Origin: Oscillospiraceae bacterium
GTDB lineage: Bacteria > Bacillota > Clostridia > Oscillospirales > Oscillospiraceae
DNA: 64,000 nt
Direction: 5' to 3'
Assembly (NCBI GenBank): GCA_017416245.1
Contig: JAFQCX010000018.1
Coordinates: forward strand, 50,285-114,284
Below the pieces are notes generated by a model, which was not told where the DNA came from, ran no database searches, and worked only from the letters and a program-made list of their open reading frames with translations. Of the stretch, positions 27,441-51,394 are shown one piece after another. How positions within the stretch are numbered: position 1 is the first letter of the stretch; each line of letters begins with the position of its first letter. The translations under genes were made by a program, and so were the position numbers.

Positions 27441-27482
27441 AACAGTGGATGCACCCATAGGATGCATCCACTTCTTTTTATG
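27441..27482. terminator. Terminator between ECF operon and split host gene
   Basis: The stem agtggatgca/tgcatccact with a 9-base loop is followed by a T-rich run. It is between convergent genes and may serve both. Confidence 0.8.
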
Positions 27483-27888
27483 TGGTGGTGTAGCCACACT
27501 CCTCGCAATCGCATTGCCGGTCACAGCCGGTAGGCGCAAAGGCCTTTTCCGGGAACGGGATCTTGGCAAACATCTCGCAGGGATCCTCGGCACAGCCGGG
27601 ATTGTCGCAGCATTCCTTGGTGGGGATGCTGTAATCCAGCACAGGCACAACCAGCTGGGCATCCCGCTCCAGGCGGATGATTGAAAACTGCCCCAGAGTT
27701 ACCAGCAGCCGCTTTCCTTCGCCGGAGATCACCAGCTCCTCGTCAAAGCAGCCGCGGATCCAATCGGGAATCTGATGCACCGCGCACTCACGGGGACACT
27801 GGCAAACATCAATCACCTTGGAGCTGAGCACCATGGGATCCAGCACCTCCACCACGGCCACCAATTCGCCAGGTGAAATTACTGTCAT
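27478..27888 (-). CDS. 3' half of a conserved host gene split by the island
   Basis: From VVEVLDPMVLSSKVIDVCQC to the C-terminal CDRQCDCEECGYTTT this is a cysteine-rich sequence. It continues naturally from the other half at 50903-51394, which ends its host part with PTAVVEV. Both halves share VVEV at the break and are on the same strand. I recall one continuous clostridial protein of about 280 residues with this composition. The first 11 residues (MTVISPGELVA) come from the island end. The ATG overlaps the recombinase stop (ATGA), so the fragment may still be translated. Function is unknown; the many Cys and Clostridia distribution would suit a spore-coat type role, which is a guess. Confidence 0.75.
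   Translation of the reverse strand: MTVISPGELVAVVEVLDPMVLSSKVIDVCQCPRECAVHQIPDWIRGCFDEELVISGEGKRLLVTLGQFSIIRLERDAQLVVPVLDYSIPTKECCDNPGCAEDPCEMFAKIPFPEKAFAPTGCDRQCDCEECGYTTT
27845..27870. other. Putative attL junction
   Basis: The 15-base core acctccaccacggcc (27845-27859) matches the right junction core acctctaccactgcc (50934-50948) at 13 positions, in direct orientation. Island-side DNA then gives caattcgc (27862-27869), an inverted copy of gcgaattg at the other end. It lies 15 bases beyond the recombinase stop codon. Confidence 0.7.
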
Positions 27889-29381
27889 TGGGAATCTGCA
27901 AATTCCTTCAGCACCACACGGACGTTGCCGTTTTTATCAACCGAGATGTGGTCAACAAGTCGGCGCATATCCATATTGGTAACGGTTTCCAGTTCCAAAA
28001 ATCGAAGGATCTGCTGGCGGTAGCGCTGCATGATCTGCTCTGCGTTGCTGATCTGCCGGGGTTGAGAGATTTGTTCCAAATCTGCAGCCTTCAGCTCTTC
28101 CGCAACGCTTGCAAGCTTCCCTTTCAGCTCTGCCATACCGATCAGCTCATTGGCATACATCTCTTGATAGCGGTCTTTTTTGCGTAGCAGCTTTTTTCGC
28201 TTGGTTTCCATTTCCTGTCTGGCCTGTTCCGGCTTTTGGGCTTCCGGAAGCTGTTTATCCAGCCTTGCCAGGATGCTTGCCACAAAAATATCCTTGTCTT
28301 CTATCAAGGATGCAAAGTATTTGCGGAGCTCCGCTATCAGTTCCGGCTCGTCCAACGTCACCCGATTATCGCACTTCTCTGCGGTATACTGATCATTGGT
28401 AACGCATCGCCAGTAGACCCGGGTGTTTACGTATGTATAGGTCTTCCGGGTGAAGGATCTGCCGCAATGCGCGCACTTGATAAGGGTGGAGAATATGTGC
28501 CTGGAGCTGTATCTGGCATCTCTGAAGGGCTGGCCGGAGTCATATTTCGTCCGCCGGGAGTCCATAATTTCCTGCGTCTTTTGAAAGTCCTCCGGGGTCA
28601 CAATAGCCCAGGAGGGGCGCTGGTGACAGAAACGCTCCTCTTTGGGAACACTCACCTGCTTTCCTGTGAGAAAATCCTCGATCTCATACTTGTGGTTGAC
28701 CAAAACGCCGCAGTATAATGGGTTTACCAGCACCCGCCGAACACCCCGGGCATCCCAGTCATTTCCGTATTTGGTTTTGTCGTTATCTCGGTTTAGGGTC
28801 ATACTGATGGTACGGCAGCCTAAGCCCTGTTCGTTGTACAGAGAAAATATCTTGCGGACGATCCGGGCTTCCTCAGTGTTAATTTCCAATGTGAACTTGT
28901 CGATCCGATCATAGCCAAAGACCCTCTGGGGAACACGGCCCTTTTCCGCATTGATTCTCTTACCCCACTTGACACGCTTACTCAGATTATTGCTTTCCTC
29001 TTGCGCCATGGCAGAGAACAGGGTCAGCACAAACTCACTGTCCCCCATCGAATCCATATTGGCGGTGAGAAATAACGTGTTGATCCCCATTGCTTTCAGC
29101 TTGCGGATGCTCTGCAGGGCGTCCACGGTGTTTCTGGCAAAACGGCTGATATCCTTGACCACCACCATATCGAACAGGCCCAATTCTGCATCCCGTAAAA
29201 GCCGTTTGAATTCCTCACGTTTTTTTAGGCTTGTGCCGGTAATGCCCTCGTCCGCATATAAGCGGAACAGTTCATGGCCGTTCCGTTTGGCATACTGGGT
29301 GAAGAATTCCTTCTGATGAAGCAGGCTATCCAGCTGCTCATCCTTGTCCGTGGAAACACGGCAATAGGCTGCTATTTTCAT
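27885..29381 (-). CDS. Large serine site-specific recombinase
   Basis: The 498-residue protein begins MKIAAYCRVSTDKDEQLDSL with the catalytic Ser10. It continues with the resolvase-domain motif FDMVVVKDISRFARNTVDAL. A recombinase domain follows at about 160-280, then a zinc-ribbon CAHCGRSFTRK...WRC and a C-terminal coiled coil rich in Lys and Glu. This is the architecture of integrases that insert phages and islands at a single att site. The gene lies at the left end of the island, overlaps the 3' half of the split gene at its stop codon, and is coupled at its start to a 41-residue gene. Confidence 0.95.
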   Translation of the reverse strand: MKIAAYCRVSTDKDEQLDSLLHQKEFFTQYAKRNGHELFRLYADEGITGTSLKKREEFKRLLRDAELGLFDMVVVKDISRFARNTVDALQSIRKLKAMGINTLFLTANMDSMGDSEFVLTLFSAMAQEESNNLSKRVKWGKRINAEKGRVPQRVFGYDRIDKFTLEINTEEARIVRKIFSLYNEQGLGCRTISMTLNRDNDKTKYGNDWDARGVRRVLVNPLYCGVLVNHKYEIEDFLTGKQVSVPKEERFCHQRPSWAIVTPEDFQKTQEIMDSRRTKYDSGQPFRDARYSSRHIFSTLIKCAHCGRSFTRKTYTYVNTRVYWRCVTNDQYTAEKCDNRVTLDEPELIAELRKYFASLIEDKDIFVASILARLDKQLPEAQKPEQARQEMETKRKKLLRKKDRYQEMYANELIGMAELKGKLASVAEELKAADLEQISQPRQISNAEQIMQRYRQQILRFLELETVTNMDMRRLVDHISVDKNGNVRVVLKEFADSQ

Positions 29382-29503
29382 TTGTTCCCCCAGTATTGGC
29401 TGAGCAGTTTGTCCACCAAAATCTTTTGCAGTTGCCGTTCAAATGCTTTTGGTGTGTTTGGATTCACAAAAATATAGGTTCGTTGCGCTGCTTGCTTTGC
29501 CAC
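29378..29503 (-). CDS. Small 41-residue protein coupled to the recombinase
   Basis: A GTG start with a perfect GAGGAGGG ribosome site seven bases upstream begins MAKQAAQRTYIFVNPNTPKA. The sequence continues basic and amphipathic (FERQLQKILVDKLLSQYW) and ends GNK. The stop overlaps the recombinase ATG. I do not recognise a named family. Its position resembles small accessory genes placed before serine integrases. It could be a directionality or expression-coupling factor, but nothing in the sequence proves this. Confidence 0.7.
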   Translation of the reverse strand: MAKQAAQRTYIFVNPNTPKAFERQLQKILVDKLLSQYWGNK

Positions 29504-29582
29504 TATGCATCCCTCCTCAGAACACTTTATTCAATAAGGAGTGTTGCAATGCCCGTAATACCGGTAAGCCGCTTTATAAAAA

Positions 29583-29615
29583 ACACCGCCGTCCCCAAGA
29601 GTGGGACGGCGGTAA
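29583..29615 (-). terminator. Terminator after the LysM surface protein
   Basis: On the minus strand the stem accgccgtcccc and its complement are followed by GTTTTTTA. It ends the surface-protein transcript before the recombinase. Confidence 0.85.
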
Positions 29616-29627
29616 ATGTATGTAAGT

Positions 29628-30623
29628 TTACTGTAATGGCGCATCCGTTGTTTCCGTAACAGGCTGCGTTTCTTCAGGCAGTGTGGTCTGCGTAGTGGGC
29701 TGCGTTTCCTCGGGCAGGGTGGTCACAGGCTCTGTTTGCTCTGTTGGAGCAGTTGTTTCGGGAGTTGTAGCGCTATCGGGTATTTCCCAATCGGCAGGCG
29801 GTATTTCGATTTTCTGCCCGATTTGGATGACGCCGGGATTCTCGACATCGTTATAAGCAGCAAGCTTAGCTGAGGTCGTATCGTACTTTTTCGCAATCAG
29901 CGCCAAGGATTCCCCCTCTTGCACGATATGGACCGTTTCGGTAGCATTCGTAGTTGGAACTGTGGTCTCAACCGTCGTGCTTTCTGTTGTGTCATCCGTT
30001 GTGCTTTCCGTTGTGCTGTCGGGCTCGGTATTCTCAGGTTTCGTTTCATCGGTGTTATCTGCAACACCCTGCACAGCATCTACCACAATGGTCTTTTTCG
30101 ATTCGTTTTTAATGTAAAATTCGCTTTCTGCTACAGAGTCATACTGCGAATTTGTTCCCCAGCGGACATCAAACTGAACTTCTGCAGTTGCCTTCACATC
30201 CAGCTGAAAGCTAACTTCCTTGCGTTCCTGATTGGGCGCGTTCACATCCTTGCCCAGCTGCTGGGTGTAATACTTGGTGCCGTTCACAGTGATAACGCCA
30301 TAACCTGTGCCGGTCGTGCTATCGTCTGCGGTGATTGTTACAGTATACACGCCAGGCGTATTAAAGCGATAGCTTTGTATTTTTCCTTCTGTTTCAATTT
30401 CCTGGTCTTTCTCTATCTTTACAGAGGCAGAGAATCTGGAGGCTTTGATCGTATTGGAGCCGGAGGTTACAGTAGATGCGAAAAAGGCGTAGGCAGAAAA
30501 GGAAATTGCAGCCAAACAAATCAGCACAGTTGTGACAGTACGAAACAGCCGCTTCAGCATCATGCTGTCTGCATCGTTTCCGTATTTTGGCTTGTAGAAT
30601 AGCTTTCCGCACAGCTTTATCAT
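29628..30623 (-). CDS. Secreted LysM protein with SipW-type signal region and Thr-rich linker
   Basis: The 331-residue protein has a long N-terminal hydrophobic helix (TVTTVLICLAAISFSAYAFF) followed by ASTVTSGSNTIKASRF, the pattern seen in SipW/TasA substrates. A beta-rich domain spans about 50-195. A Thr/Glu-rich stalk leads to a LysM domain (VHIVQEGESLALIAKKYDTT to IGQKIEIPP), then a second Thr/Pro/Glu-rich tail with two copies of TLPEETQP. LysM binds peptidoglycan, so this could anchor the surface structure to the wall. I placed the start at 30623 because the earlier ATG overlaps the AAAGGAGGT ribosome site. Confidence 0.82.
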   Translation of the reverse strand: MIKLCGKLFYKPKYGNDADSMMLKRLFRTVTTVLICLAAISFSAYAFFASTVTSGSNTIKASRFSASVKIEKDQEIETEGKIQSYRFNTPGVYTVTITADDSTTGTGYGVITVNGTKYYTQQLGKDVNAPNQERKEVSFQLDVKATAEVQFDVRWGTNSQYDSVAESEFYIKNESKKTIVVDAVQGVADNTDETKPENTEPDSTTESTTDDTTESTTVETTVPTTNATETVHIVQEGESLALIAKKYDTTSAKLAAYNDVENPGVIQIGQKIEIPPADWEIPDSATTPETTAPTEQTEPVTTLPEETQPTTQTTLPEETQPVTETTDAPLQ

Positions 30624-30655
30624 ATTGCAACCTCCTTTCATAGATTTTCAAGCCT

Positions 30656-31306
30656 TTAGCTTGTGATCTGGTCCGCCTTGACGGTAATGCCCAGCTCTAC
30701 TTCAGGGGGACCATCTTTACGATAATTGGCGATATTGTTTACTTCCTTGGGCATACGGACCACCAAAGCAATATAGGCAGTCCCACCGGCCTTCAAAACA
30801 GCTGTCTTGGTTTCGTAGTTATGAAGCCTTATGTTGGCAATATCCTCTGCCGTTTCCCGGTTGGCAACACTGTTTTTCATAGCCTCCGGTGTGTCGGAGA
30901 CGGTAATACCAAATCGCAAATGATCCTGCAGCTTAAAGGTCTGCCCGAACACATTGGTTGCGGTGGTATAGCCATTCACATTCACAGCTGTGTGGAATTT
31001 AAAGGGAACAGAGCCCTTGTTTTCCACCTTCAGATATACCACCTGCACATAGCCTGGCTCATACAAGGCTTCTTTGTTGAATAGTTCCGTTTTGTCGGTG
31101 ATCTCTTCCCAGCTGCCGTCAGTTAACTGATGGGATACCACCAAATCAAAATCCGCAAAGTGGAAGATGTTGTTGATCTCCGGCGTGGTATCGGTAAACC
31201 AGGCCAGCGATGTGCCGGCGCCCAAAACGCCCCACACGATCAGTGCGCACACACTCAGGGCTAAGGCTATTTTTTTGTAGGGTTTCTTTCTTTTTTGGGT
31301 TTTCAA
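30656..31306 (-). CDS. TasA/camelysin-like SipW-dependent secreted protein
   Basis: This 216-residue protein has a basic N-terminus and a hydrophobic core ending in GTSLAWFTDTTPEINN, the typical AWFTD cleavage region of SipW substrates. The mature domain has NIFHFADFDLVVSH and EALYEPGYVQVVYLKVENKG. These are conserved features of TasA-like subunits that polymerise into surface fibres. It starts at TTG with AAGGAGGG upstream. It lacks any extra domain, so it may be a plain fibre or accessory subunit. Confidence 0.85.
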   Translation of the reverse strand: MKTQKRKKPYKKIALALSVCALIVWGVLGAGTSLAWFTDTTPEINNIFHFADFDLVVSHQLTDGSWEEITDKTELFNKEALYEPGYVQVVYLKVENKGSVPFKFHTAVNVNGYTTATNVFGQTFKLQDHLRFGITVSDTPEAMKNSVANRETAEDIANIRLHNYETKTAVLKAGGTAYIALVVRMPKEVNNIANYRKDGPPEVELGITVKADQITS

Positions 31307-31338
31307 ACCTTATCCCTCCTTCGTCTGTTTTGCGGCAA

Positions 31339-32109
31339 TTACTGCCGGTCCTTCTTCCTTGCAATCAGCAAAATGATGATCACAGCAGCGGAAACGATCA
31401 TTCCGCCTATCCACAAGCCCACGGTTGCATTATCGCCGGTCTGTGGTGGCTTGGGATCTTTCGGCTCTACAGGGAATTCTTCGACTCTGAATTCCCAATC
31501 CAAATAGCCGATTTGGTTTTGAAATGCGTTGTCCAGCTCTACGGGAACGGTCAAGGTCACATCCAGGTTGACCTGGCCGCCGGAGTAGAGCGTGCCTAAG
31601 CACACCCAATCTGTCAGCTGCGCAGTTTCGTTGGCTTTGGCATCAAACATATATGCCATTTGATTATCGCCACTCTTTTGCACCTTAAGACCCAGCTTGG
31701 AAAGGAACTCTGCAGATTCCTCATGGGCGCCCAGAGCGCGTAGGTAGATCTCCACCTTCACCTTCTTATCAGCCTTGTTATTTACGGTGATCTTTTGGGT
31801 GAGGGTGTCGCCGGGCATTACGTCCTTAAAATCAGGAAACAGGTCGGTCAGTGAGTGTTCGCTGCCGGGCTCAAACACAAAGCTACCGGCATTTCCGCTG
31901 TAAGTCACCTTGCCGTCAGCTGCAAAAGCAGGTGTGACGCAGGAAAGCAGCAACGCAATAACCATTGTCATTGCAAGCCAGCCCTCAGGCCGCTTTTTTC
32001 TGTCATTGCGAGGAGCGGAGCGACGTGGCAATCCCCCATATAAGAAGGGGATTCCCACGACCAGTTTGCGAACTGGTCTCGGAATGACACAATTTTTTGT
32101 ATTCTTCAT
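31339..32109 (-). CDS. Sortase-type anchored surface protein with repeat inserted in its signal peptide
   Basis: The C-terminus is a cell-wall sorting signal: PPQTGDNATVGLWIGGMIVS, a hydrophobic helix, and ARKKDRQ. The mature domain (ADGKVTYSGNAGSFVFEPGS onward) is beta-rich, with a DVMPGDTLTQKITVNNKADK segment also found in TasA-like families. The signal sequence is unusual. Between MKNTKN and RKKRPEGWLAM lie about 29 codons that are a copy of the dispersed palindromic repeat read in frame. The hydrophobic part (TMVIALLLSCVTPAFA) and classical AFA|AD cleavage site follow. Whether the long basic N-region still allows export is uncertain. A sortase gene is not in the window. Confidence 0.82.
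   Translation of the reverse strand: MKNTKNCVIPRPVRKLVVGIPFLYGGLPRRSAPRNDRKKRPEGWLAMTMVIALLLSCVTPAFAADGKVTYSGNAGSFVFEPGSEHSLTDLFPDFKDVMPGDTLTQKITVNNKADKKVKVEIYLRALGAHEESAEFLSKLGLKVQKSGDNQMAYMFDAKANETAQLTDWVCLGTLYSGGQVNLDVTLTVPVELDNAFQNQIGYLDWEFRVEEFPVEPKDPKPPQTGDNATVGLWIGGMIVSAAVIIILLIARKKDRQ
32002..32088. repeat. 87-bp palindromic repeat inside a coding region
   Basis: gtcattgcgagg and ggaatgac bound a unit of the dispersed family, 87 bases long, so the reading frame of the surface-protein gene is kept. Confidence 0.75.
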
Positions 32110-32122
32110 TTACACATCCTCC

Positions 32123-32689
32123 TTATTCTGCAGGCCAGCCGGAGGCGGTGTGGATATTGCCGTCTGTGATGGGGTTGTTTTCACTTTGCACGGCCTGGGC
32201 ATTTACGGTCAGACTAAGGGTCTTGCCGATGTGATTGGTTTGTACCTTATCGCCCACGATTTCCACGTGGGAGAATACATTGGGGGTCGTTTCACCGGGA
32301 TTGACAATGTTTTTGTAGTAGTACCAGCCCTCGTGGAGCTGCCAGTGCTCGCTATCAATGTTCAGCTTTAAGCAATCCTCAGGGGTCAGATCCTGAGCAG
32401 TTGTGCCGTAAATCATTTTCACCCGGAGGTAGAACGGATGGGCGCAATCATTTTCGATACTGACTTCCTTGGATACCACATCCCCGGGGATAATATACAC
32501 ACCCTCTGCAGGGAATTCCGTACCCTGATCGGTCTTTTCGTGAATGATGAGCTGAATGTTGCCGGAGGTCACCACATTGGTGGCTTTGCCTACGGTCTGA
32601 TAGTATGCAACAGTGGGCTGTACCATAAACGCAAACAGCGCAGCCACCACTGAAACAACAGCGATTTTCATTTTGATCTTGCCAAACAT
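32123..32689 (-). CDS. SipW-type secreted protein
   Basis: The 188-residue protein starts MFGKIKMKIAVVSVVAALFA with the signal region ending PTVAYYQTVGKATNVVTSGN, a variant of the SipW substrate pattern with AYYQ in place of AWFT. The mature beta-rich domain contains VYIIPGDVVSKEVSIENDC, then FYLRVKMIYG. AAAGGAGGA precedes the ATG at 32689. Open frame extends upstream but has no ribosome site. It is likely a fibre subunit or chaperone-like partner of the neighbouring TasA-like protein; this is inference. Confidence 0.78.
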   Translation of the reverse strand: MFGKIKMKIAVVSVVAALFAFMVQPTVAYYQTVGKATNVVTSGNIQLIIHEKTDQGTEFPAEGVYIIPGDVVSKEVSIENDCAHPFYLRVKMIYGTTAQDLTPEDCLKLNIDSEHWQLHEGWYYYKNIVNPGETTPNVFSHVEIVGDKVQTNHIGKTLSLTVNAQAVQSENNPITDGNIHTASGWPAE

Positions 32690-32711
32690 GGTGTATCCTC
32701 CTTTCTTAGTT

Positions 32712-32970
32712 GTCATTGCGAGGGCCGTAGGCCCGTGACAATCTTTTTCGGCAATCAAAAGGCACAAAATCCAAAGCCTTCTCCTTGAGGAGAAGGTGTC
32801 AAAAATCTCTGATTTTTGACGGATGAGGTGTAACACAACGCTATAGGCTCCCTCGGATCGGATGAGGGAAATAGACTTACACCTCATCAGTCACCTGCGG
32901 TGACAGCTTCCCCTCAAGGGGAAGCCTTTATGCCCTTTGATTGCCGCCTATCCCCCAAAGGGGATAGGTC
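32712..32970. repeat. Intergenic module A: long inverted repeat with insert and 3' hairpin
   Basis: A 20-base arm cggcaatcaaaaggcacaaa (32749-32768) pairs with tttatgccctttgattgccg (32927-32946). Between them is a palindromic insert with ttctccttgaggagaa and cttcccctcaaggggaag. A separate hairpin, cctatcccccaaaggggatagg, follows at 32947-32968 just after the next gene's stop codon. A short REP-type unit lies at 32712-32741. No gene is visible. Confidence 0.75.
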
Positions 32971-32985
32971 GGACTTTGGATAGAA

Positions 32986-35826
32986 TTACTTAATGTTGAT
33001 AGTAGTCTTGGTGCCGTTGGTGCTGTCCCAAGGAGAAACATATGCCATCTGACCATATGCAGGTGCAGTACAGCCTTCCATATTTACCTCGATACCAACA
33101 GAGAATTTGCTGCTGTTGATTTCAACACCGCCCTCAGAATTGGTGTCTGTGGTAGTAAAGGTGCAGTTCTTAAAGTTTACAACCTGCTTGCCGCCATCGA
33201 TATCGTCATCCTTGTAGCAGTTCACAGCGCGATTGCCATAGATAAAATCGCAATCAATAAAGTTGACGTTCTTCGCACCGTAGGTCCAAACAGAATGAGG
33301 CTGACCCATGGTATTCGCACTGGAATCGATCACACAGTTTTCAAAAGTAACCTTATCGCCGTACAGGATCTGCAGACCGGTGATGTGGCAGTTTTTGTAA
33401 GTCAAGCTTGCAGTGTTGGCAAAGCCCATATAAAGCTTGCTCGGATCACTTTCATTAAACTTGAGAGTCACACCGTCAAAGGCAACAGTAGCGCCCGTTA
33501 CAAACTGATCATTTGCGGAAATGGTTGACGTGTCAATTACAGTATCCTTCGTTCCGCTGATGGTAATGGTCTTGCCCTGAAGGAGAACATTGCCACCGTT
33601 CAGGCTTGCGGGCATAACGTAGTTACCTGCGGGCAGAGAAATGCTTTCTTTACCACTGGTGATTGCGTTATTCAGCGCAGTCTGAGAGGCTTCACGCAGC
33701 ATAAATACGCCGTCAATGGTCAGCTCGCCGGTAACCCAACGACCAATGTAGTCATTAAATACAGCGGTAGCATTGTTGTTGGAAACGGTGTTACCGGATA
33801 CGGTTACGTTGGTCAGAGTAGTGTTAGCATTGACAGTGCCAATCACAGCGCCTGCAAGAGGAAGCTTGGTTCCCTCGCGATCTTCAGTAGCAGTCACTTT
33901 GGTATTCTTAACGCTGCAATTCTCAATTGTGGTTACAGACTGAGAATAAGCAACCAGACCGGCCGCACCGCCAACTGCAGAAATCTCACAGTTTTCAACT
34001 GAGCAGTTCTTAATAGTCACGCTTTGGCCGGAAGTGTAGCCAACCAAGCCGGCGGCGCGCTCGTTACCATTAATGGTGGAGTTCTTGATGTGGCAATCCT
34101 CAAAGGTTACATTGCCGTATGCATCCACATAGGGGATGAATGCGCCACTGCCAAGACCGTTCTCAAATGCAGCAGGAGCCACAGTAGAATCAGCAACGGT
34201 CAAGCCGCTGATTGTTACCTTGCTGCTAACGCCGCCGGTCAGCAGAGGCAGGTTCAAATTGGTAATGGTGTTGCCGTTACCAATGATGGTCAGCTCACCG
34301 TTGGGCTTAACAGATGTCCAGGCATTGGCCATATCAATGTCATCTGCCACATAAACTACGCCACTGTTTGCAATAGCAGTTGCCAGCTCGGCAGCAGTGG
34401 AAACAACGCTGTTGATGTTCTCAGCAACAACATAGTACTTGCCGTTATTCTCAACAGCCTTGTAGCCGGTAGCAACTTTGTCAGCAACAGTACCGCCGCC
34501 GTAAGTCTTGGCAGCAGCATTCATAAAGGTACCGCCCTTAACCACAACATTTGCGCCTGCATAGCACAGAGCGCTGCCGGAAGAAGCATCAAAGGTGCCG
34601 CCGTTGATCTCAACAGCGCCGCCATCCCAAGTGCCAATCACGGGAGAGCCATTTGCGCTGGCGTATTGATCTGCAGCAAAGGTGAAATTACCACCATTGA
34701 TGATAATCTTACCGTTATTCCAAACGGAAACAACATAGTGGCTGGAATTAACCTCAACATTGGAGAAATTGCCACCGTTGATAATCAGCGTGCCACCAGG
34801 AACAGCAACGGCACCGAAACCGCCCTCGACAACAATGCCGTCATCCACGGTAACGGTACTGCCAGCCTGGGCGCGGACCACATACTGACCTGCATTGCCT
34901 TTAATTGTACCTTCACCGGTCAGGTTCAAATTGCCGTTGGCGCGAATTGCGGCGTCAGCAGTTGCTTCCAAAGTCTTACCATTCAGGTTCAGAGCAACAG
35001 TTTTGCCTTCAGGAATAACAACAGCTTCGGTAGCATCGATGTTGTCCATCAAGGTGATAGCAGACTCGCCCGCATTGATTGCACCCTGCAGCTCGTTAGC
35101 ACTGTAAACCTTAAAGCCCTTTACCCAAGCGTTCTTGTCGTAGAACTCGTCGAAGGAGTCTTCCTCAGCAGTATACTGAGTAGCATACAGGTTGATGCCC
35201 AACTCGATGGTGGGGATAGCGTCGCCGCGGTAGTTAGCCTCGTTGCCAACAGTCTCGGGCATATAAACGATCAGGGCTACGTAGTCCTCAGCGTTTGCGC
35301 CGCCCTTGGCATCCAGAGCAGTGGTCTTGCCGTTATAGTCGGTCAGGCCCTTCGCAGTGCCTGCGGCCAACTTAACAGCCTCACGGTCGGTGTAAGTAGT
35401 GAGTGCATCGGGCATCTCCACAACCTTGAACACCAGATATTCAGACAGCTTGATGTCTTCGCCGGTCTCGGTCTTGCCCAGGGTCTCCTTGATTACGTTC
35501 ACGCCCAGCTGATACTTCAGAGCCAAAGTGCCAAGGTTGGAAACCTTCAGGTAAACGACCTCAACATGGCCCGGCTCCCACAGAGCATTGGGGTTGAAAA
35601 TATCAGTCTTGTCCTTAACGCTGGCCCACTCGGTGGACACTACGCCGTTATCGACCTTTTTGTACTCCAGCTCAACGTCCAAATTTCCGGACTTGATGAT
35701 ATTATTGCCGGAAGTGACGCTGTCTGTGAACCAAGCGAAGGTGCTGCCTACCAGCATGGAAACGCACAGCAGCAAAGACAGTGCGCTCAGCAGCAAAGCA
35801 CGCTTGGTGCTTTTCTTATTTGTCAT
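32986..35826 (-). CDS. SipW-dependent beta-helix adhesin-like protein
   Basis: The 946-residue protein opens with KKSTKRALLLSALSLLLCVS and then MLVGSTFAWFTDSVTSG, the SipW-type signal. A TasA-like domain runs to about residue 235 and closes with ATQYTAEEDSFDEFYDK. The remaining 700 residues are repetitive right-handed beta-helix sequence with recurring INGGxF and ENCxI turns (IIINGGNFTF, VEINGGTFDASS, IKNCSVENCEIS). Such helices usually bind carbohydrates or surfaces. The start at 35826 follows GGGAGGT. It is exported and probably held in the fibre through its N-terminal module. Confidence 0.88.
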   Translation of the reverse strand: MTNKKSTKRALLLSALSLLLCVSMLVGSTFAWFTDSVTSGNNIIKSGNLDVELEYKKVDNGVVSTEWASVKDKTDIFNPNALWEPGHVEVVYLKVSNLGTLALKYQLGVNVIKETLGKTETGEDIKLSEYLVFKVVEMPDALTTYTDREAVKLAAGTAKGLTDYNGKTTALDAKGGANAEDYVALIVYMPETVGNEANYRGDAIPTIELGINLYATQYTAEEDSFDEFYDKNAWVKGFKVYSANELQGAINAGESAITLMDNIDATEAVVIPEGKTVALNLNGKTLEATADAAIRANGNLNLTGEGTIKGNAGQYVVRAQAGSTVTVDDGIVVEGGFGAVAVPGGTLIINGGNFSNVEVNSSHYVVSVWNNGKIIINGGNFTFAADQYASANGSPVIGTWDGGAVEINGGTFDASSGSALCYAGANVVVKGGTFMNAAAKTYGGGTVADKVATGYKAVENNGKYYVVAENINSVVSTAAELATAIANSGVVYVADDIDMANAWTSVKPNGELTIIGNGNTITNLNLPLLTGGVSSKVTISGLTVADSTVAPAAFENGLGSGAFIPYVDAYGNVTFEDCHIKNSTINGNERAAGLVGYTSGQSVTIKNCSVENCEISAVGGAAGLVAYSQSVTTIENCSVKNTKVTATEDREGTKLPLAGAVIGTVNANTTLTNVTVSGNTVSNNNATAVFNDYIGRWVTGELTIDGVFMLREASQTALNNAITSGKESISLPAGNYVMPASLNGGNVLLQGKTITISGTKDTVIDTSTISANDQFVTGATVAFDGVTLKFNESDPSKLYMGFANTASLTYKNCHITGLQILYGDKVTFENCVIDSSANTMGQPHSVWTYGAKNVNFIDCDFIYGNRAVNCYKDDDIDGGKQVVNFKNCTFTTTDTNSEGGVEINSSKFSVGIEVNMEGCTAPAYGQMAYVSPWDSTNGTKTTINIK

Positions 35827-43491: not shown

Positions 43492-43538
43492 AATTAATAA
43501 ATCCTCCAAAATTGATTCAGATCTTTATGGTTGGTCAA

Positions 43539-44645: not shown

Positions 44646-44731
44646 GGTTTTTCTTCCTTTCATAAATATTATTTCAAAATCACGCCTACGGGCATGCCAT
44701 TCGCAAACGCGATCCTAAAACCGTTGTAAGT

Positions 44732-44950: not shown

Positions 44951-44955
44951 AATGG

Positions 44956-45558: not shown

Positions 45559-45581
45559 GTTATCAACTCCTTTCTTGTTTT

Positions 45582-45779: not shown

Positions 45780-45788
45780 TCTTAATAA

Positions 45789-48140
45789 TTACTGAATTTG
45801 TACACCGTCTACATAGACATTGGATGTGGTCATGCTAAAGTCGGTAGCAACATTGGAAGCAACTCCCTTAATGGTAGTACCTTCGATAGAGCATCCGTTG
45901 AATGTGTAGGTTGTACCATCTACATTCAAACCACCGGTAATAGCACCCATCAGATTGTCGTATACGCCACCAAAGCTACCATTGAAATCAACTACACAGT
46001 CCTTTACGGAACAGTTTTCAAAAGTACGGTTGCCGTTTTCGTTGGTGAGTCCGATGATAGCACCGGCAGCAGAGGGAGCATAGACCTCGGTGTTCTCTGC
46101 GGAACAATCGATAACATTACCGCTGTTGTGAAGACCAACAAGGCCACCTGCCTGCCAATAAGAGCTGAAAATCATAGAGTTCTTAACATGGCAGTTGGTG
46201 ATGGTACCGTAAATAGTACCGCCCAGCGCACCAACACGGCCATTGCCCTGAATCCGAGCGCCGTCGATGGTTACGTTCTTAATATCAACAGTACCATTGA
46301 AGAGTGCCTGATTATCGCTGCCGGAATTGCTGCTAATGTCCAAGTTGCTGATGGTGTAACCCTGACCGTCAAAGGTAGTCTTCATTTCAGGCTCCCAGAA
46401 TCTAATGGGTTTAATTGCAACATCGGCACAATCAATATCGTTCATCAGCTTCAGAGTCTTGTTTGCAAAATAGCTGTCTGCTTGTGCTTCTACCCATACA
46501 AAACCATTGGCGTTGTAAATTAAATAGTTGCCAGCCGCATCCGTCAGAACACCGTCAGCTACTTTTTCGTAACCATCAGGCATAACGACATAGGTGCCGT
46601 TGCCCATATCCATAGCCTGATAGCCGGTTGCAACATTGGTGTGCTTGTAGTTGAAGGTGCCGCCCTTAACAGTTACGTCGGGACGAACGGGATGACCTGC
46701 GGGGTTGCTCTCGTGTGCATTAAATACACCGCCGTTAATGACCATTTGGGAACCGGCCATCAAATAGGAGGTCTTCTCAACCTTGGTAAAGGTGCCGCCG
46801 TTGATGGTTGCAGGGGAGCTGTTGGAGTTGATAACCTCATTACCGTTACCGGAGAAATTACCACCGTTAACAATCAAGTTAGGACCTGCATGATAAATAG
46901 CGTGAGTAAATCCGCCTCTGTTAGTTGCGATTTCACCATCTTCAATGGTCAAGGTGCCCACATTGTAGATACCGCCGGTAACAATGGCGGTTTCAATGGT
47001 CATAGTACCACCTGCCTGATTGTTCAGGGAATAGCCGCCTACAGAGGTGAAGGTGCCGCTCTTAATATCTACGATGCCGTAATTGAAGATAGCAGCGCCG
47101 CCGTTGGTACCGAGTGCGTTGTAGACACCGTTCAGGACGGTAATCTTAGCGGTAGCAACATGTTCACCATCGGGATTATAACCGTTGTAAATACCGCGGG
47201 CATTGATAGAACCTGCAGAGGTGCTTCTCAGGCTGTATGTGGTAGCAGCCTTGGAGTCATACAGAGTCAGCTCGCCCAAGTTACGAATAGCATAGTCGTT
47301 GGCAGCGTCTTCAGCAGTGATAGACTTTCCGTTCAGGTCCAAAGCAACGGTCTTGCCCTCGGGAATAATGGGGGTGGTGTCGTTGGGGATGATGAAGTCC
47401 TCGGTAACCTTGAAGTTACCGCCCTGGTTGAAAGCAGCCTGCATAGATGCAGCATTGGAAATTTCACCGTCATAGTCAGCCAGCTTGTCGTAGAATTCGT
47501 CGAAGCTGTCTTCCTCGTAGGTGTACTGGGTAGCCAGGATCTTGATATCGAAGAAGCCGATGGTCTGCTCCTGATATTCGTTGCCGGCAGTCTCACGCAT
47601 CTTCAGAGCGATACCCAGATTAGCGGTTGCACCGGCAGTGCCCTTGGGAGTCAGGGTGCCATAAGTAGAAGCCTCGATGCCGCCCAGGAACTGACGAACA
47701 GTACCTGCATTGGTCCAGGTTGCCAGATCATCGCGGGTCAGGGCCTCAAACTCTGCCTCAGTAGCACCGGGCTTAACAAACACATCGATTACGTCAGCCA
47801 GGATGCCCAGCGCAGTGTCAGAAACAAATGCTGCCTTCCATTTCAGAGCCAGGCTGCCTTCGTTCTCAACCTTCAGAAGCTTGGCATCCACATAACCGGG
47901 CTCCCAATTCTGATAGGTAAAGATGGGGTCATTGTTTTCCTTGATGGAATTCCACTGATCTGTTTCTTTGTTGTACAGCTCCAGATCGACCGCCAAATTA
48001 CCGGCTTGGATCTTGTTGCTGCCGGAAGTAACGCTGTCAGTAAACCAAGCGAAGGTGGAGCCAATCAACATGGACACACACATCAGCAAGGACAAGGCGC
48101 TTAACAGCAGAGCGCGCTTGGTAGATTTACGCTTTGTCAT
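45789..48140 (-). CDS. SipW-dependent beta-helix adhesin-like protein
   Basis: The 783-residue protein opens KRKSTKRALLLSALSLLMCV and continues MLIGSTFAWFTDSVTSGSN. A TasA-like module to about residue 235 ends LATQYTYEEDSFDEFYDKLA. The rest is beta-helix with IIPEGKTVALDLNGKSITAE and many VNGGNFSG and INGGTFTK turns. It is a paralogue of the 946-residue protein at 32986, sharing both modules. AAGGAGGTCAT precedes the ATG. It is the first large structural gene after the SipW copy-2 group. Confidence 0.88.
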   Translation of the reverse strand: MTKRKSTKRALLLSALSLLMCVSMLIGSTFAWFTDSVTSGSNKIQAGNLAVDLELYNKETDQWNSIKENNDPIFTYQNWEPGYVDAKLLKVENEGSLALKWKAAFVSDTALGILADVIDVFVKPGATEAEFEALTRDDLATWTNAGTVRQFLGGIEASTYGTLTPKGTAGATANLGIALKMRETAGNEYQEQTIGFFDIKILATQYTYEEDSFDEFYDKLADYDGEISNAASMQAAFNQGGNFKVTEDFIIPNDTTPIIPEGKTVALDLNGKSITAEDAANDYAIRNLGELTLYDSKAATTYSLRSTSAGSINARGIYNGYNPDGEHVATAKITVLNGVYNALGTNGGAAIFNYGIVDIKSGTFTSVGGYSLNNQAGGTMTIETAIVTGGIYNVGTLTIEDGEIATNRGGFTHAIYHAGPNLIVNGGNFSGNGNEVINSNSSPATINGGTFTKVEKTSYLMAGSQMVINGGVFNAHESNPAGHPVRPDVTVKGGTFNYKHTNVATGYQAMDMGNGTYVVMPDGYEKVADGVLTDAAGNYLIYNANGFVWVEAQADSYFANKTLKLMNDIDCADVAIKPIRFWEPEMKTTFDGQGYTISNLDISSNSGSDNQALFNGTVDIKNVTIDGARIQGNGRVGALGGTIYGTITNCHVKNSMIFSSYWQAGGLVGLHNSGNVIDCSAENTEVYAPSAAGAIIGLTNENGNRTFENCSVKDCVVDFNGSFGGVYDNLMGAITGGLNVDGTTYTFNGCSIEGTTIKGVASNVATDFSMTTSNVYVDGVQIQ

Positions 48141-48249
48141 TTTTTATGACCTCCTTAATGTAATGCGTCAACGTTGGGAAATGATGAAACCATCCTCACG
48201 CTGACCGTTGACCCAACGCGGGAGAAGGTTAATTTTTACATTTGCCTTT

Positions 48250-48453
48250 CGGCAATCAAAAGACACAAACGCTAACGCGAGAGAAAAGATAAGAGAGAAT
48301 AGAGAAAAGAATCGGTGTTTCGCTGTGCGAAACAAATTTATAAGCTGTGCCGCTGTGGCGGCACACCGAAACTTTTCACTTTTCACTCTTCACTGCCGAC
48401 ATAGTCGGCCTTTGTGTCCTTTGATCGCCGCCCACCCCGAAGGGTGGAACGGC
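48250..48453. repeat. Intergenic module F: inverted repeat with insert (orientation 2)
   Basis: Arms cggcaatcaaaagacacaaa (48250-48269) and tttgtgtcctttgatcgccg (48411-48430) flank the reverse complement of the module B insert (cgctaacgcgag near the left end, gccgacatagtcggc near the right). A variant hairpin (ccaccccgaagggtgg) follows. Confidence 0.78.
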
Positions 48454-48504
48454 TTTCAATGAAAAGACGAATAGCAATGTAAGTAACGCTCCTTATTGGA
48501 GCAA

Positions 48505-48711
48505 TCAGTATTTCACAAACGGCAGCAGCGATAGCCACAATTTCCGCCGTCTGCGGATCCAATACTGTCGTTCAAGGCCGCTGTTATATTGGATTTTCTC
48601 ATTGATATTGCGTAGCTCTCGAGAAAACGCTACAAAGAACGCGATCAACGCACCTATCACCAAGACGAAAAAGACGCAAACAAAAAGATTCATAAGGAAG
48701 TTCATAGGCAT
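48505..48711 (-). CDS. Small membrane protein, unrecognised
   Basis: The 68-residue protein has one hydrophobic helix (NLFVCVFFVLVIGALIAFFV) followed by a basic segment with RRRRK. It lies four bases after the DUF3789-like gene and between the signal-peptidase copy 2 and the first adhesin gene. The ATG at 48711 is supported by CATAAGG-poor context only, and MNFLMN two codons later is possible. Function unknown; a role in secretion of the surface proteins is a guess from position. Confidence 0.65.
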   Translation of the reverse strand: MPMNFLMNLFVCVFFVLVIGALIAFFVAFSRELRNINEKIQYNSGLERQYWIRRRRKLWLSLLPFVKY

Positions 48712-48715
48712 AGAT

Positions 48716-48859
48716 TTATTCGTTATCCGTTGTTTCTTCTTTTTCTTCTTTCAGCATCCGATCAAACATCTTCTCTTCCTGTCTGGATGCGCTCAAGACC
48801 GCGCAGACGACAAAGCCAAAAGCCACGCCAATCAGTAAACCCAAAATAAAAGGAACCAT
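48716..48859 (-). CDS. 47-residue membrane protein, DUF3789-like
   Basis: The reading is MVPFILGLLIGVAFGFVVCA, then VLSASRQEEKMFDRMLKEEK and a short acidic tail. One N-terminal membrane helix with a charged tail matches the DUF3789 pattern seen in conjugative elements. AGAGAGTTAAG precedes the ATG, 13 bases after signal peptidase copy 2. It supports the mobile origin of the cluster. Confidence 0.68.
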   Translation of the reverse strand: MVPFILGLLIGVAFGFVVCAVLSASRQEEKMFDRMLKEEKEETTDNE

Positions 48860-48872
48860 CTTAACTCTCTCT

Positions 48873-49577
48873 TTATAAATTCTTTTCCTCCCCGGAAGCA
48901 GTTTCCGCGGGCAAAGCGCCCTCCAGCTGCGCTTTCAGAGCCATAAGCTCTTCCAGCATTTTGGCATTTTCTTCCTTTTCAGCCTGAAGCTTGTCCCGTT
49001 CGGCCTGCATCTGCTCCATCTGCTCCTGCTTGTATTTGCGGAACAGATTGAAGAAATTCACCGCCTCATATATGATAATCAGCATAAAGGGCGTGAAAAT
49101 ACAGACAAAATAGCCGGGAGTGGTCTTCAGGAAATTAAAGAATGTACCAAGTCCGGGAATTTGTTTTTGATATTTGCCCAGCACATAGGGGTATGTAACA
49201 ACGGTTTCGTCGTCCACGCCGGTGGTGGTGCCGTAGGTAACGAAGGCGGGATTGCCCTCGGCATCGGTAGTCAGGCGACGGATCTTATGGGTGACCGTCT
49301 CCCCGAAGCTGTTGGCATCCTGGGACATAAAGGTAATGATATCCCCTTCCTTCAGGGTAGACGGATCCACTTCCTTTGTCAGGATCAGCGCGCCGGCTTT
49401 GAAATCGGTGGCCGCCATAGAATCGGAATTGACAATGTACATCTTATAGCCGAACAGGCTGCGGTCGTTCCGGTTAAAGGTGGTAACGGAAACGACTGTA
49501 AAGATCATCATAAACACCGCCAGCAGAACAACCAGCCATACAAGGGTCGTTTTTAGAATTTTCAGTGCATTCTTCAT
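48873..49577 (-). CDS. SipW-type (ER-type) signal peptidase I, copy 2
   Basis: The 234-residue protein has an N-terminal helix (TTLVWLVVLLAVFMMIF). The catalytic Ser is in YIVNSDSMAATDFKAGALIL and the His base in ETVTHKIRRLTTD, again the Ser-His form. A second helix (GYFVCIFTPFMLIIIYE) and a long C-terminal coiled coil (KQEQMEQMQAERDKLQAEKE) follow. The stop of tetR overlaps its ribosome region, so both are cotranscribed. It is diverged from copy 1, which suggests the two peptidases serve different substrates. The start at 49577 follows GAGAGAGG. Confidence 0.9.
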   Translation of the reverse strand: MKNALKILKTTLVWLVVLLAVFMMIFTVVSVTTFNRNDRSLFGYKMYIVNSDSMAATDFKAGALILTKEVDPSTLKEGDIITFMSQDANSFGETVTHKIRRLTTDAEGNPAFVTYGTTTGVDDETVVTYPYVLGKYQKQIPGLGTFFNFLKTTPGYFVCIFTPFMLIIIYEAVNFFNLFRKYKQEQMEQMQAERDKLQAEKEENAKMLEELMALKAQLEGALPAETASGEEKNL

Positions 49578-49578
49578 A

Positions 49579-50175
49579 TTAAGCCTCTCTCTCCAATGTT
49601 CTTTTGAAGTATTGCTTGACCGAGACGTAAATGACCCGGAACACGTGCTCACTGTAATTGTCACTGCGCGACATAAGTTCGTTGTGAACCTTTACCGCAA
49701 AATCAAGCATTACATTTAATATGTGATTGAGAATCATCCACACATCCGCTTCTTCTATAAAGGCCGGTCTAAATGTTTCAACCAGCAACTTAAACCGGGC
49801 TTCGTGGATACGGCAAGAATACTTTTTGAAATAGGGGGAGTAGTAGTAACGGACATAGGCCAGACATTTCTCTTTGTTGCCGAGCAAGAACGCCCAAACC
49901 GCAAAGAAGAAGCGGCGGCAGCGCTGCTCAAAGTCCAATTCCGTCATGTCCATAACATGTATATGCTGAAACACCTGCTCTGCCAGCTCTGCATCTAAGC
50001 AGTCAAAGGTCTTTGCGAACATATCCTCCTTACCTGCAAAGCAACGGTAGATATACGCTTCGTTGACGGACGTTTCAGTACCGATTTGTTTGGTTGTGGC
50101 TTTGTCTAAACCATCTCTGGCGATAACCCGGATCGTGCCGTCAATCAACTTTTGACGGATCTCATCCTGCCTCAT
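49579..50175 (-). CDS. TetR-family regulator of the island
   Basis: The 198-residue protein has a TetR helix-turn-helix at about 10-55 (ATTKQIGTETSVNEAYIYRC followed by FAGKEDMF) and a helical ligand domain. It is the first gene of the surface-protein run, ending one base from signal peptidase copy 2. A perfect 19-bp palindrome lies 55 bases upstream of its start and is the likely operator. AAGGAG precedes the ATG. It probably represses its own operon; the inducer is unknown. Confidence 0.88.
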   Translation of the reverse strand: MRQDEIRQKLIDGTIRVIARDGLDKATTKQIGTETSVNEAYIYRCFAGKEDMFAKTFDCLDAELAEQVFQHIHVMDMTELDFEQRCRRFFFAVWAFLLGNKEKCLAYVRYYYSPYFKKYSCRIHEARFKLLVETFRPAFIEEADVWMILNHILNVMLDFAVKVHNELMSRSDNYSEHVFRVIYVSVKQYFKRTLEREA

Positions 50176-50230
50176 AATCTGCTACTCCTTCCTGCGTGTA
50201 AATGTTTGCTACATTTTTCTCCAAATTTTT

Positions 50231-50249
50231 GCAAACGCGTTGCGTTTGC
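50231..50249. promoter_or_regulatory. Probable TetR operator
   Basis: gcaaacgc-gtt-gcgtttgc is a perfect inverted repeat between the KTR gene and tetR, in the position expected for an autoregulatory operator. Confidence 0.65.
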
Positions 50250-50343
50250 CGAAAATGATGGATTTAAAAAGTAATTCTTACGCAGGCCTCAATACGGCCT
50301 GCCGGGAACCCCTTCGTGCCGTTTGAGAGATTATGCACCAAAT

Positions 50344-50547
50344 TCACAATTCATGACAGGGCACAGGCTCCAAGGGCACAGGCTCAGGTTTTACGCTTAC
50401 AATACTTTCCTTGCCGCATCGTTTGCACTTGATGGGCAAGTCCTTGATTTCAGTAGTGGGAAGCAACCAAAGTACCGTATGTTTTCCGCATTCCGGACAC
50501 AAAAACCGTCTTCGTTCTTCCATTTTTGTGCGTATCGTTTCTTCCAA
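50344..50547 (-). CDS. Cysteine-rich KTR-type protein
   Basis: The 67-residue protein has a zinc-ribbon pattern, FLCPECGKHTVLWLLPTTEI and DLPIKCKRCGKESIV, matching small KTR proteins carried by conjugative transposons. The C-terminus is PEPVPLEPVPCHEL, a short repeat. TTG at 50547 is the start, eight bases after AAGGAG. It is the first gene after the promoter near attR. Function unknown. Confidence 0.75.
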   Translation of the reverse strand: MEETIRTKMEERRRFLCPECGKHTVLWLLPTTEIKDLPIKCKRCGKESIVSVKPEPVPLEPVPCHEL

Positions 50548-50797
50548 TTTCCTCTCTCCTTATGTTTGTAACTGCCATCCTGTTCAACGGCAAAAAAGTA
50601 TGCGCCACGGATCGCGTTAAGCGATACAAGGCGCAGGCTCTAAGGCGCAGGCACAAACGAAGTACGCACGTTATTGTATAATCCTCTGTAATCGTAAGCA
50701 GACCAAGTCCTATGCGCTTACAAATAGCACAGATAGATATCGCTATAGCTATGTAAACTGATCGGAATCTCCCCCAATTTACATATATGGTGCTTAC
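50548..50797 (-). other. Long leader of the island transcript
   Basis: About 250 bases lie between the promoter and the KTR gene. A short tandem ggcgcaggctctaaggcgca occurs near 50630. I found no open frame with a ribosome site and no riboswitch I recognise. Confidence 0.4.
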
Positions 50798-50826
50798 ATT
50801 ATACAGGAAACCTTCTTGAAAATCAA
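50798..50826 (-). promoter_or_regulatory. Promoter at the right end of the island
   Basis: On the minus strand TTGATT, exactly 17 bases, TATAAT, about 110 bases inside attR and facing the island genes. Confidence 0.7.
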
Positions 50827-50902
50827 GTAAAATATAGCAAAAAAGCATTTGAGTTTTCTGCATTTTCTTGTGCATTATGATAGCGCCCAAAGCCATATTA
50901 TT

Positions 50903-51394
50903 CTACATCCCCCCTTGCGAATTGTGGGCAGTGACCTCTACCACTGCCGTAGGATTGTTGGCGATCACCTTTGTGATGCCGTCCGGCCCGTTCAGACAGG
51001 TGGTGCTGGTGAAGATATGGGCGCGGCTGTCCTCTCCGCAAAGCACCGCCCGCTTGGAGAACATAGCCAGACCTGTCAGTGTCACAGGTCTGCAGGTCCC
51101 CACCACAACGTCCGCCAGTATGCGATAGTAGAATGTAGCATCCACACAGTAATGGTTGCGGTCGAACGCCACAGGCTCTACATCTATATAAGTATACAGC
51201 AGCTCTGCGCAACGTACCTTTGCCCCGTTGCTGGTATCCAGAATGTTCTGGGATGCAGTGGTCAGATACACCCGCAGATCCTCGATGCAGTCCTTATCCC
51301 GACAGCTGTCAGTGATCTTCCTGGTGTGAATGGAGAGAGCCTCCTGCAAATCCTCTATATTGCAGCGCACGCTCCCCTGACAAAACTCACGCAT
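50903..51394 (-). CDS. 5' half of the conserved host gene split by the island
   Basis: The protein begins MREFCQGSVRCNIEDLQEAL and continues RDKDCIEDLRVYLTTASQNI and RCAELLYTYIDVEPVAFDRN. Host sequence ends at PTAVVEV; the last residues (TAHNSQGGM) come from island DNA, then a stop. The missing remainder is the fragment at 27478-27888. GGAGGTAATACT sets the start at 51394. The intact gene would be about 276 residues. I recognise the pieces as one conserved Clostridia protein but cannot name its function. Confidence 0.78.
   Translation of the reverse strand: MREFCQGSVRCNIEDLQEALSIHTRKITDSCRDKDCIEDLRVYLTTASQNILDTSNGAKVRCAELLYTYIDVEPVAFDRNHYCVDATFYYRILADVVVGTCRPVTLTGLAMFSKRAVLCGEDSRAHIFTSTTCLNGPDGITKVIANNPTAVVEVTAHNSQGGM
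50917..50948. other. Putative attR junction
   Basis: Core acctctaccactgcc (50934-50948) matches attL at 13 of 15 positions. Island-side arm gcgaattg (50917-50924) is the inverse of the arm beside attL, so joining the two island ends gives a roughly palindromic attP, as serine integrases use. Confidence 0.7.

What the first reader, a model, noticed from the sequence alone, without database searches (positions are those of the whole stretch)
27478..51394. A 23-kb island splits one conserved host gene, with halves preserved at both ends
The halves share VVEV at the break, lie on the same strand and complete each other into one cysteine-rich protein of about 276 residues. The serine recombinase at attL and the shared core indicate precise, reversible insertion. 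Elements of this kind in sporulation genes are known to excise on cue and rebuild the gene. If the target is a spore gene, this island could be a developmental switch carrying surface-fibre cargo.
Basis: partly seen in the sequence, partly recalled or inferred. Interest (0 to 1): 0.85.

Follow-up and report, generated by a model that had tools for sequence, protein, structure and literature searches.

The report
Mobile island splitting probable spore gene
A 23-kb DNA island sits inside a conserved gene of a gut bacterium, probably one used in making spores, in such a way that cutting the island out would exactly rebuild the gene; related bacteria carry different islands at the same place, which suggests a docking site that is cleared when spores form, although no excision has been observed.

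Summary
Confirmed. A minus-strand gene is cut at codon 153 by a 23,089-bp element (27848-50936) with a large serine recombinase beside the C half. Orthologues are intact in most relatives; joining the halves at the shared GA restores PTAVVE-VLDPM in frame. In the genus, 13 of 136 genomes are split at this codon; 12 of them, and no genome with an intact gene, carry this recombinase at >=64% identity (one intact genome has a 46% relative). Nine genomes of six other genera are split there too, two by a recombinase only about 25% identical. Upstream of 105 of 108 orthologues lies a sigma-K-like promoter (AC-N16/17-CATAnnnT[AG]; shuffle means under 0.3 per group), though only 8 of 108 fit the stricter TA-ending form. 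In four species sharing one element type both halves keep low dN/dS and no stops. Best reading: a skin-like intervening element in a new, unannotated target. Junctions, target conservation and the promoter motif are shown; excision, its timing and its cell type are inferred. Surface-fibre cargo is real here but not shared by all elements. New variant of a known kind.

The parts
50936..51394 (-). N-terminal half of the interrupted host gene (residues 1 to 153; the ORF runs on to 50903 with an element-encoded tail)
27478..27849 (-). C-terminal half of the interrupted host gene (residues 153 to 275 and stop)
51441..51472 (-). sigma-K-like promoter of the host gene: TGCACCAT-N13-GCATAAACTGT
27848..50936 (.). 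intervening element, 23,089 bp counted with one GA core copy
50917..50938 (-). attachment site on the N side: GA core plus arm GGTCACTGCCCACAATTCGC
27848..27869 (-). attachment site on the C side: arm GCGAATTGGTGGCCGTGGTG ending in the GA core
27885..29381 (-). large serine recombinase, 498 aa
29378..29503 (-). 41-aa ORF overlapping the recombinase start; candidate directionality factor (inferred)
29628..30641 (-). cargo: LysM-domain protein
30656..31306 (-). cargo: protein of unknown kind (DUF4179 below cut-off)
31339..32109 (-). cargo: protein with C-terminal LPXTG-type anchor (TIGR01167 over cut-off)
32123..32887 (-). cargo: BsaA-like SipW-dependent protein similarity, below cut-off
32986..35877 (-). 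cargo: SipW-dependent signal peptide protein with beta-helix
36091..41433 (-). cargo: 1780-aa SipW-dependent / camelysin-type protein
41749..43509 (-). cargo: SipW-dependent / camelysin-type protein
43539..44663 (-). cargo: SipW-dependent signal peptide protein
44956..45660 (-). cargo: signal peptidase I (TIGR02228 over cut-off; SipW model below its cut-off)
45789..48140 (-). cargo: SipW-dependent / camelysin-type protein
48873..49664 (-). cargo: second signal peptidase I (TIGR02228 over cut-off; SipW model below its cut-off)
49579..50175 (-). cargo: TetR-type regulator

Best explanation
This is a sporulation-type gene-intervening element. A mobile element with a large serine recombinase integrated at a fixed site (crossover GA in GTRGAGGT) inside a conserved Oscillospiraceae gene that carries a sigma-K-like (late mother cell) promoter. 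In growing cells the gene stays split. During sporulation the recombinase, probably with the small ORF beside it as directionality factor, excises the element from the mother-cell chromosome and rebuilds the gene, while the forespore chromosome keeps the element. Shown: the split, the intact relatives, the in-frame restoration, the recombinase-site link, the palindromic attP, the promoter motif, and purifying selection on both halves in four related species. Inferred: that excision occurs, when and in which cell, the role of the small ORF, and the spore function of the protein.
For: Intact orthologues. Genus: 13 of 136 genomes (own included) split at the same codon; 12 of the 13 carry the same recombinase family, and none of the genomes with an intact gene has a copy at >=64% (hypergeometric 2.6e-16, kinship ignored). 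Reconstructed attP is palindromic about GA (8-18 of 20 arm positions, shuffle mean about 5; host site 1-4 of 20; 11 elements). Joining at GA restores VVE-VLDP in frame in 11 of 11 genomes of the genus with both halves seen. Sigma-K-like motif: 54 of 55 in the genus set, 40 of 40 other genera, 11 of 13 other families; spoIVA upstreams 0 of 20. In C. difficile sigma-E and sigma-K share the -10 and differ at the -35, ATA against AC (PMC3789822, passages). SpoIVA over cut-off in 55 of 60 genomes, own included. Four species with one 5.5-kb element type: dN/dS 0-0.17 (N half), 0.014-0.12 (C half), no stops, while recombinase dS 0.32-0.47 resembles flanking host genes at 0.27-0.66.
Against: No excised form was seen: the attP pattern matched no viral contig. 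The promoter pattern was settled after viewing the sequences; with the stricter TA ending (AC-N15/18-CATAnnnTA) only 8 of 108 match, shuffle mean 0.88. Recombinase upstreams fit neither the target nor the spoIVA matrix, only the window's own marginally (11.5 against a shuffle maximum of 11.0); 0 of 17 have the sigma-K form and 3 of 17 an ATA-type sigma-E form. The ATAnAnT match before the small ORF (10 of 13; control 24 of 311; 6 of 9 lineages) was also chosen after looking. In the four species the host halves have lower dS (0.04-0.27) than the flanks, so codon constraint or local exchange may blur how long they have been apart. The phylum profile was uninformative. The own assembly holds a second, contig-truncated copy (G000:C47), so the split gene may be redundant. 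The target has no curated family (NCBIfam 0; Pfam chance-level in 2 of 18), no PDB relative and no fold match at E <= 0.001. yabG, wanted as a control, was absent in 45 of 45.
Confidence: 0.7

Rival explanations
1. An ordinary integrative element that uses a conserved gene as attachment site. The gene is simply inactivated in carriers and the element leaves only to transfer; there is no developmental role.
For: A same-genus element with an 84% identical recombinase is 59 kb and looks conjugative (VirB4 of the CD1110 family over cut-off, ParA-like protein below cut-off), and a predicted viral contig carries a 56% recombinase beside a C half. Split genomes are scattered on the gene tree (7 changes, weakly supported). 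The gene had no match in 6 of the 60 genomes.
Against: Both halves stay open and show low dN/dS in four species whose recombinase and flanks are about equally diverged; the sigma-K-like promoter is kept on the window's split gene; no stop in the joined frame of 11 of 11.
Confidence: 0.2
2. The two halves work as two separate proteins and never rejoin.
For: In the window the C-half ORF starts with an ATG overlapping the recombinase stop.
Against: No ATG precedes the junction in the C-half frame in 12 of 19 elements, and a Shine-Dalgarno-backed start was found in 2 of 19. Orthologues are one protein.
Confidence: 0.04
3. Excision does rebuild the gene, but on another cue (stress, phage induction, random low-level switching) rather than sporulation.
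For: SP-beta also excises on mitomycin C treatment (PMC4191935, passages); no mother-cell promoter was established for the recombinase here.
Against: The target promoter is of late mother-cell type, so rebuilding would matter mainly there.
Confidence: 0.05
4. Assembly or binning artefact.
For: The window is from a 66% complete assembly of 51 contigs.
Against: The same configuration lies on single contigs in five other genomes of the genus (G064, G141, G143, G149, G155) and six of other genera (G225, G416, G461, G443, G480, G322).
Confidence: 0.01

Closest known systems
skin element in sigK (B. subtilis; skinCd of C. difficile)
   Same: Element with a serine recombinase splitting a late mother-cell gene; excision restores the gene (PMC10747680, section 1 part 1; PMC5025042, passages)
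   Different: The target here is not sigK but an unannotated gene, and no phage genes were seen on the window's element. In C. difficile the directionality factor CD1234 is under sigma-E and SpoIIID; here one is only a candidate
SP-beta in spsM (B. subtilis)
   Same: Recombinase plus a small accessory protein (SprB, 58 aa); before sprB a perfect sigma-E/K -10 with an imperfect -35 (PMC4191935, passages), which the site before the small ORF here resembles
   Different: SP-beta is an active phage in another target; there sprA and sprB have separate promoters (passages)
gin element in gerE (B. cereus ATCC10987)
   Same: Non-phage island in a sporulation gene; gene content differs between strains (PMC5595907, section 1 part 1)
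   Different: gin has three serine recombinases and a 9-bp overlap, and its target is a transcription factor
yin element in yabG (C. botulinum)
   Same: Intervening element in a sigma-K-regulated gene of the Clostridia (PMC10747680, section 1 part 1)
   Different: Prophage-like and by its abstract not found in other strains; yabG had no match in 45 of 45 genomes here

Membership tests
Sporulation-specific gene-intervening elements | Element lies inside the coding sequence of a single host gene that is intact in relatives | tested here: met
Sporulation-specific gene-intervening elements | Element-encoded site-specific recombinase linked to the site | tested here: met
Sporulation-specific gene-intervening elements | Short shared core; excision restores the reading frame | tested here: met
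   (by sequence, not by experiment)
Sporulation-specific gene-intervening elements | Host gene is a sporulation gene | tested here: inconclusive
   sigma-K-like promoter in 105 of 108 orthologues, 8 of 108 with the strict TA ending; no phenotype, no curated family
Sporulation-specific gene-intervening elements | Recombination directionality factor | tested here: inconclusive
   small ORF of 35-51 aa upstream of the recombinase in most elements; role inferred
Sporulation-specific gene-intervening elements | Excision in the mother cell during sporulation | not testable with these tools
   needs cells or reads
skin (sigK-intervening) element | Inserted in sigK | tested here: not met
   no sigma-factor model among the Pfam or NCBIfam matches of 18 orthologues
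Large serine recombinase | Resolvase N-terminal, Recombinase and zinc-ribbon domains | tested here: met
ICE or prophage | Conjugation or phage structural genes on the window's element | tested here: not met
   none among 13 island proteins scanned with Pfam; PHROGs was run only on the recombinase and small ORFs. Another element, G155, has a conjugation ATPase

The most novel reading that the evidence does not exclude
A conserved, unannotated sigma-K-controlled spore gene of Oscillospiraceae is a family-wide developmental docking site. Conjugative elements, phage-like elements and 4-kb mini-elements with at least two unrelated serine recombinases enter at one codon, are tolerated because they leave the terminal mother cell, and ride in the germ line carrying vegetative-phase cargo such as matrix fibres or type IV pili, so that the bacterium separates germ-line from somatic DNA on a population-wide scale in the gut.
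Probability: 0.5. Interest if true: 0.82.

Novelty: new variant of a known kind. Interest (0 to 1): 0.72.

Why it matters
Programmed DNA excision in sporulation has been worked out in a few model species and targets. Here one target gene in gut commensals has been entered at the same codon by many different elements, giving natural replicates: lineages with and without an element, small and large, with related and unrelated recombinases. That makes the question of why mobile elements settle in late mother-cell genes directly testable. It also points to a conserved, unannotated protein as a probable spore component, and to a compact (3.8 kb) recombinase unit with a clear attP/attB pair.

Tried and rejected
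Phylogenetic profile with SpoIVA across the phylum: 13 of 149 genomes matched the target profile, all 13 with SpoIVA, and none of the 18 without SpoIVA matched; with 131 of 149 positive this is no test. yabG as a sigma-K control: no match in 45 of 45. Promoter matrices on recombinase upstreams: no convincing match. Fold search: no hit at E <= 0.001, model pLDDT 76.9. attP pattern in viral contigs: none. Scan for the target promoter in 949 kb of loci: 69 hits, 48 flagged as target and 2 more (L074, L152) at the target by position; of the other 19 I inspected five: four lie at one conserved place with no ORF behind them, one (L072) precedes a 104-aa ORF of unknown kind. A second insertion site near residues 60-78 (G037, G086, G124, G014) was not adopted: G086 and G124 are contig ends, and G037's N part has decayed. 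Rows left out of the split count of 13: G006 (overlapping pieces, frameshift-like), G016, G086, G087, G124 (contig ends), G065 (partial), G014's second fragment. In one search, G436, G454, G489 proved intact frames in two aligned pieces and G471 partial; they are not counted.
Full report
What is there. On the minus strand of the window a host gene starts at 51394 and is cut at codon 153; its end lies 23 kb away at 27849-27478. Joined at the shared GA, the two parts give 275 residues without a stop. The shared DNA right at the break is short, GAGGT within GTRGAGGT. The element, with one core copy, is 27848-50936, 23,089 bp. Next to the C half is a 498-aa large serine recombinase (Pfam Resolvase, Recombinase and Zn ribbon). 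A 41-aa ORF at 29503-29378 overlaps the recombinase start.

It is one gene elsewhere. N-half matches were found in 54 of 60 genomes and C-half matches in 52 of 60, the own genome included in both. tblastn of both halves on 31 loci found them colinear and abutting in 29; the two exceptions are L001 (the window's own N half) and L007 (a genome itself split). An alignment of 18 orthologues, six of the genus and twelve of other families of the order, runs across the junction with 31-75% identity to the first row. The protein has no NCBIfam match, chance-level Pfam matches in 2 of 18 members, and no PDB match; a predicted model (pLDDT 76.9) is mostly beta strand and matches no PDB fold at E <= 0.001.

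The same codon in other genomes. With an intact orthologue as query, 128 of 136 genomes of the genus matched. Thirteen are cut at codons 153-155: G000 (window), G020, G025, G064, G091, G114, G141, G143, G149, G154 and G155 with both halves seen, G031 with the N half only, G110 with the C half only. Six have both halves on one contig, with 5.5 to 59 kb between them. Searching the same 136 genomes with the window's recombinase at E <= 1e-100 gave 13 genomes: 12 are split-gene genomes (all but G031, whose contig ends), at 64% identity or more; the thirteenth, G024, has an intact gene and 46% identity (in some genomes only part of the first-look candidates was scored). The chance of that overlap is 2.6e-16 by the hypergeometric test, ignoring kinship. 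In a family-level sample, 170 of 200 genomes matched at E <= 1e-20 (whose match list is cut). I looked closer at 19 of these, picked for double or weak matches: nine outside the genus, in six genera, are cut at the same place (G225, G416, G461, G328, G443, G480, G322 with both halves; G392 N only; G372 C only). G443 and G480 carry serine recombinases only 24-25% identical to the window's, so an unrelated enzyme hit the same codon; G392's, beside its N half, is 41%. G225, G416 and G461 have elements of about 3.8 kb with recombinases 47-51% identical to the window's; G225 has a NagB-like gene (PF01182) and G416 one by eye, G461 was not checked. A predicted viral contig carries a 56% recombinase beside a C half.

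Attachment sites. Twelve N-side and eleven parsed C-side junctions place the crossover at GA. The attP reconstructed from 11 elements is palindromic about that GA: 8 to 18 of 20 arm positions against a shuffle mean near 5, with at most 4 of 500 shuffles reaching the value in 10 of 11 and 53 of 500 in G155; the host site gives 1 to 4 of 20. Joining at GA gives VVE-VLDP in frame in 11 of 11 (G154 was read because my script cut it short). The other-genus junctions, read by eye, fit the same place.

The target looks like a late mother-cell gene. Upstream of the orthologues the motif AC-N16/17-CATAnnnT[AG] occurs in 54 of 55 sequences of the genus set (assigned by sequence identity), 40 of 40 of other genera and 11 of 13 of other families, with dinucleotide shuffles giving means of 0.28, 0.23 and 0.11; spoIVA upstreams of the genus give 0 of 20, but 17 of 20 for TCTA-N14/18-CATAnnnT. 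I settled the spacing and the T[AG] ending after seeing the sequences. With the stricter form AC-N15/18-CATAnnnTA only 8 of 108 match (shuffle mean 0.88), while CATA alone is in 107 of 108 (mean 50). In C. difficile the sigma-E and sigma-K promoters share the -10 and differ at the -35, ATA against AC (PMC3789822, passages). The window's split gene keeps the motif at 51472-51441. SpoIVA is in the window's genome and over cut-off in 55 of 60 genomes. This is a promoter inference, not a phenotype.

Selection while split. Four species (G020, G064, G141, and L119 = G143) carry the same element type, 5.5 kb where it is on one contig; in G020 it spans two contigs. Pairwise dN/dS is 0 to 0.17 for the N half (G020 only residues 80-155), 0.014 to 0.12 for the C half and 0.095 to 0.155 for the recombinase. 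Recombinase dS (0.32-0.47) is like that of the host genes on either side (0.27-0.66 for the ABC gene in four species, 0.31-0.32 for the epimerase in three), so the element has probably been there since their common ancestor; separate acquisition from a diverse pool is not excluded. The two halves themselves have lower dS (0.04-0.27) than these flanks, by codon constraint or local exchange, which weakens the dating. Still, both halves kept their sense while apart, which fits a gene that is rebuilt.

Mobility. The gene tree asks for 7 changes of the split label (shuffled mean 10.3), but well-supported branches force only 1. The window's recombinase is 89% and 84% identical to those of G091 and G155, whose elements differ: G155's is 59 kb and looks conjugative, with a VirB4 of the CD1110 family over cut-off and a ParA-like protein. 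So the unit seems to move, yet some copies seem inherited.

Cargo. The window's island has two signal peptidases (TIGR02228 over cut-off, SipW model below), five proteins with SipW-dependent signal peptides over cut-off, three with camelysin domains over cut-off, and LysM, LPXTG-type and TetR proteins. G091 also carries proteins with SipW-dependent signals. G322 carries type IV pilus-type ATPases and a pilin-like protein. The 5.5-kb type carries a sigma-70-type factor, the 3.8-kb type NagB. Surface structures recur but are not universal.

How it probably works. In SP-beta, sprA is expressed in growth and sprB is induced in the mother cell (PMC4191935, passages); in skinCd the recombinase CD1231 is constitutive and the RDF CD1234 is under sigma-E and SpoIIID (PMC5025042, passages). 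By analogy the small ORF here may be the timing factor. The script's pattern found it in 13 of 18 loci; several of the five misses can be seen, G372 shows none. ATAnAnT lies within 45 nt of its start in 10 of 13, against 24 of 311 control genes, or 6 of 9 lineages; I chose that pattern after seeing the sequences, so it is a lead only. The tests on the recombinase upstreams were negative for the sigma-K form (0 of 17) and gave 3 of 17 for an ATA-type sigma-E form (shuffle mean 0.33, maximum 2).

Against it. No excised circle or joined gene was seen (one search found none in viral contigs; no reads were available). A second, truncated copy of the gene lies on another contig of the same assembly (G000:C47), either a paralogue, as in G144, or contamination (rated 2.4%). 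If it is contamination the argument stands; if a paralogue, the split copy may be redundant.

Novelty. Searches of the open-access library (of several only the top of the list was shown) listed intervening elements in sigK, spsM, gerE and yabG, and a passage names spoVFB; none of the listed papers concerned this target or an Oscillospiraceae case. Subscription papers and preprints were not searched.

Noticed in passing
G037: L035 3635-3754 (-) and L036 1531-2142 (+): In another family the same gene is broken at the codons of YIDV; the two pieces, 18 kb apart on opposite strands, share TACATTGATGTA, and a different serine recombinase lies beside the N piece, whose beginning has decayed.
   Followed up: partly
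L044 2780-4294: In G048 a serine recombinase gene lies directly upstream of the intact orthologue.
   Followed up: no
L161 (G144:C126) 7317-8135 and 10902-11732: Two full copies of the target gene lie on one contig in opposite directions; G000:C47 (L032) holds a second truncated copy in the window's own assembly.
   Followed up: partly
window 51422-51437: A small inverted repeat (ATAAGC...GCTTAT) follows the -10 of the target gene and recurs in many orthologues of the genus; possibly a 5' hairpin of the transcript.
   Followed up: no
window 36091-41433: The 1780-aa cargo protein has a weak match to an intein-containing family near its C terminus (residues 1553-1661), below cut-off.
   Followed up: no
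L157 and L158 (G086, G124): Two assemblies end inside the gene near residues 75-78, close to the YIDV codons; it may be chance or assembly trouble at a second insertion site.
   Followed up: no
L033 4158-4968 (G006): The orthologue is in two overlapping frames, a frameshift or assembly error.
   Followed up: no
L200 8270-9223 (G443): The element with the unrelated recombinase carries a Viral_Rep-type replication protein (PF02407).
   Followed up: no
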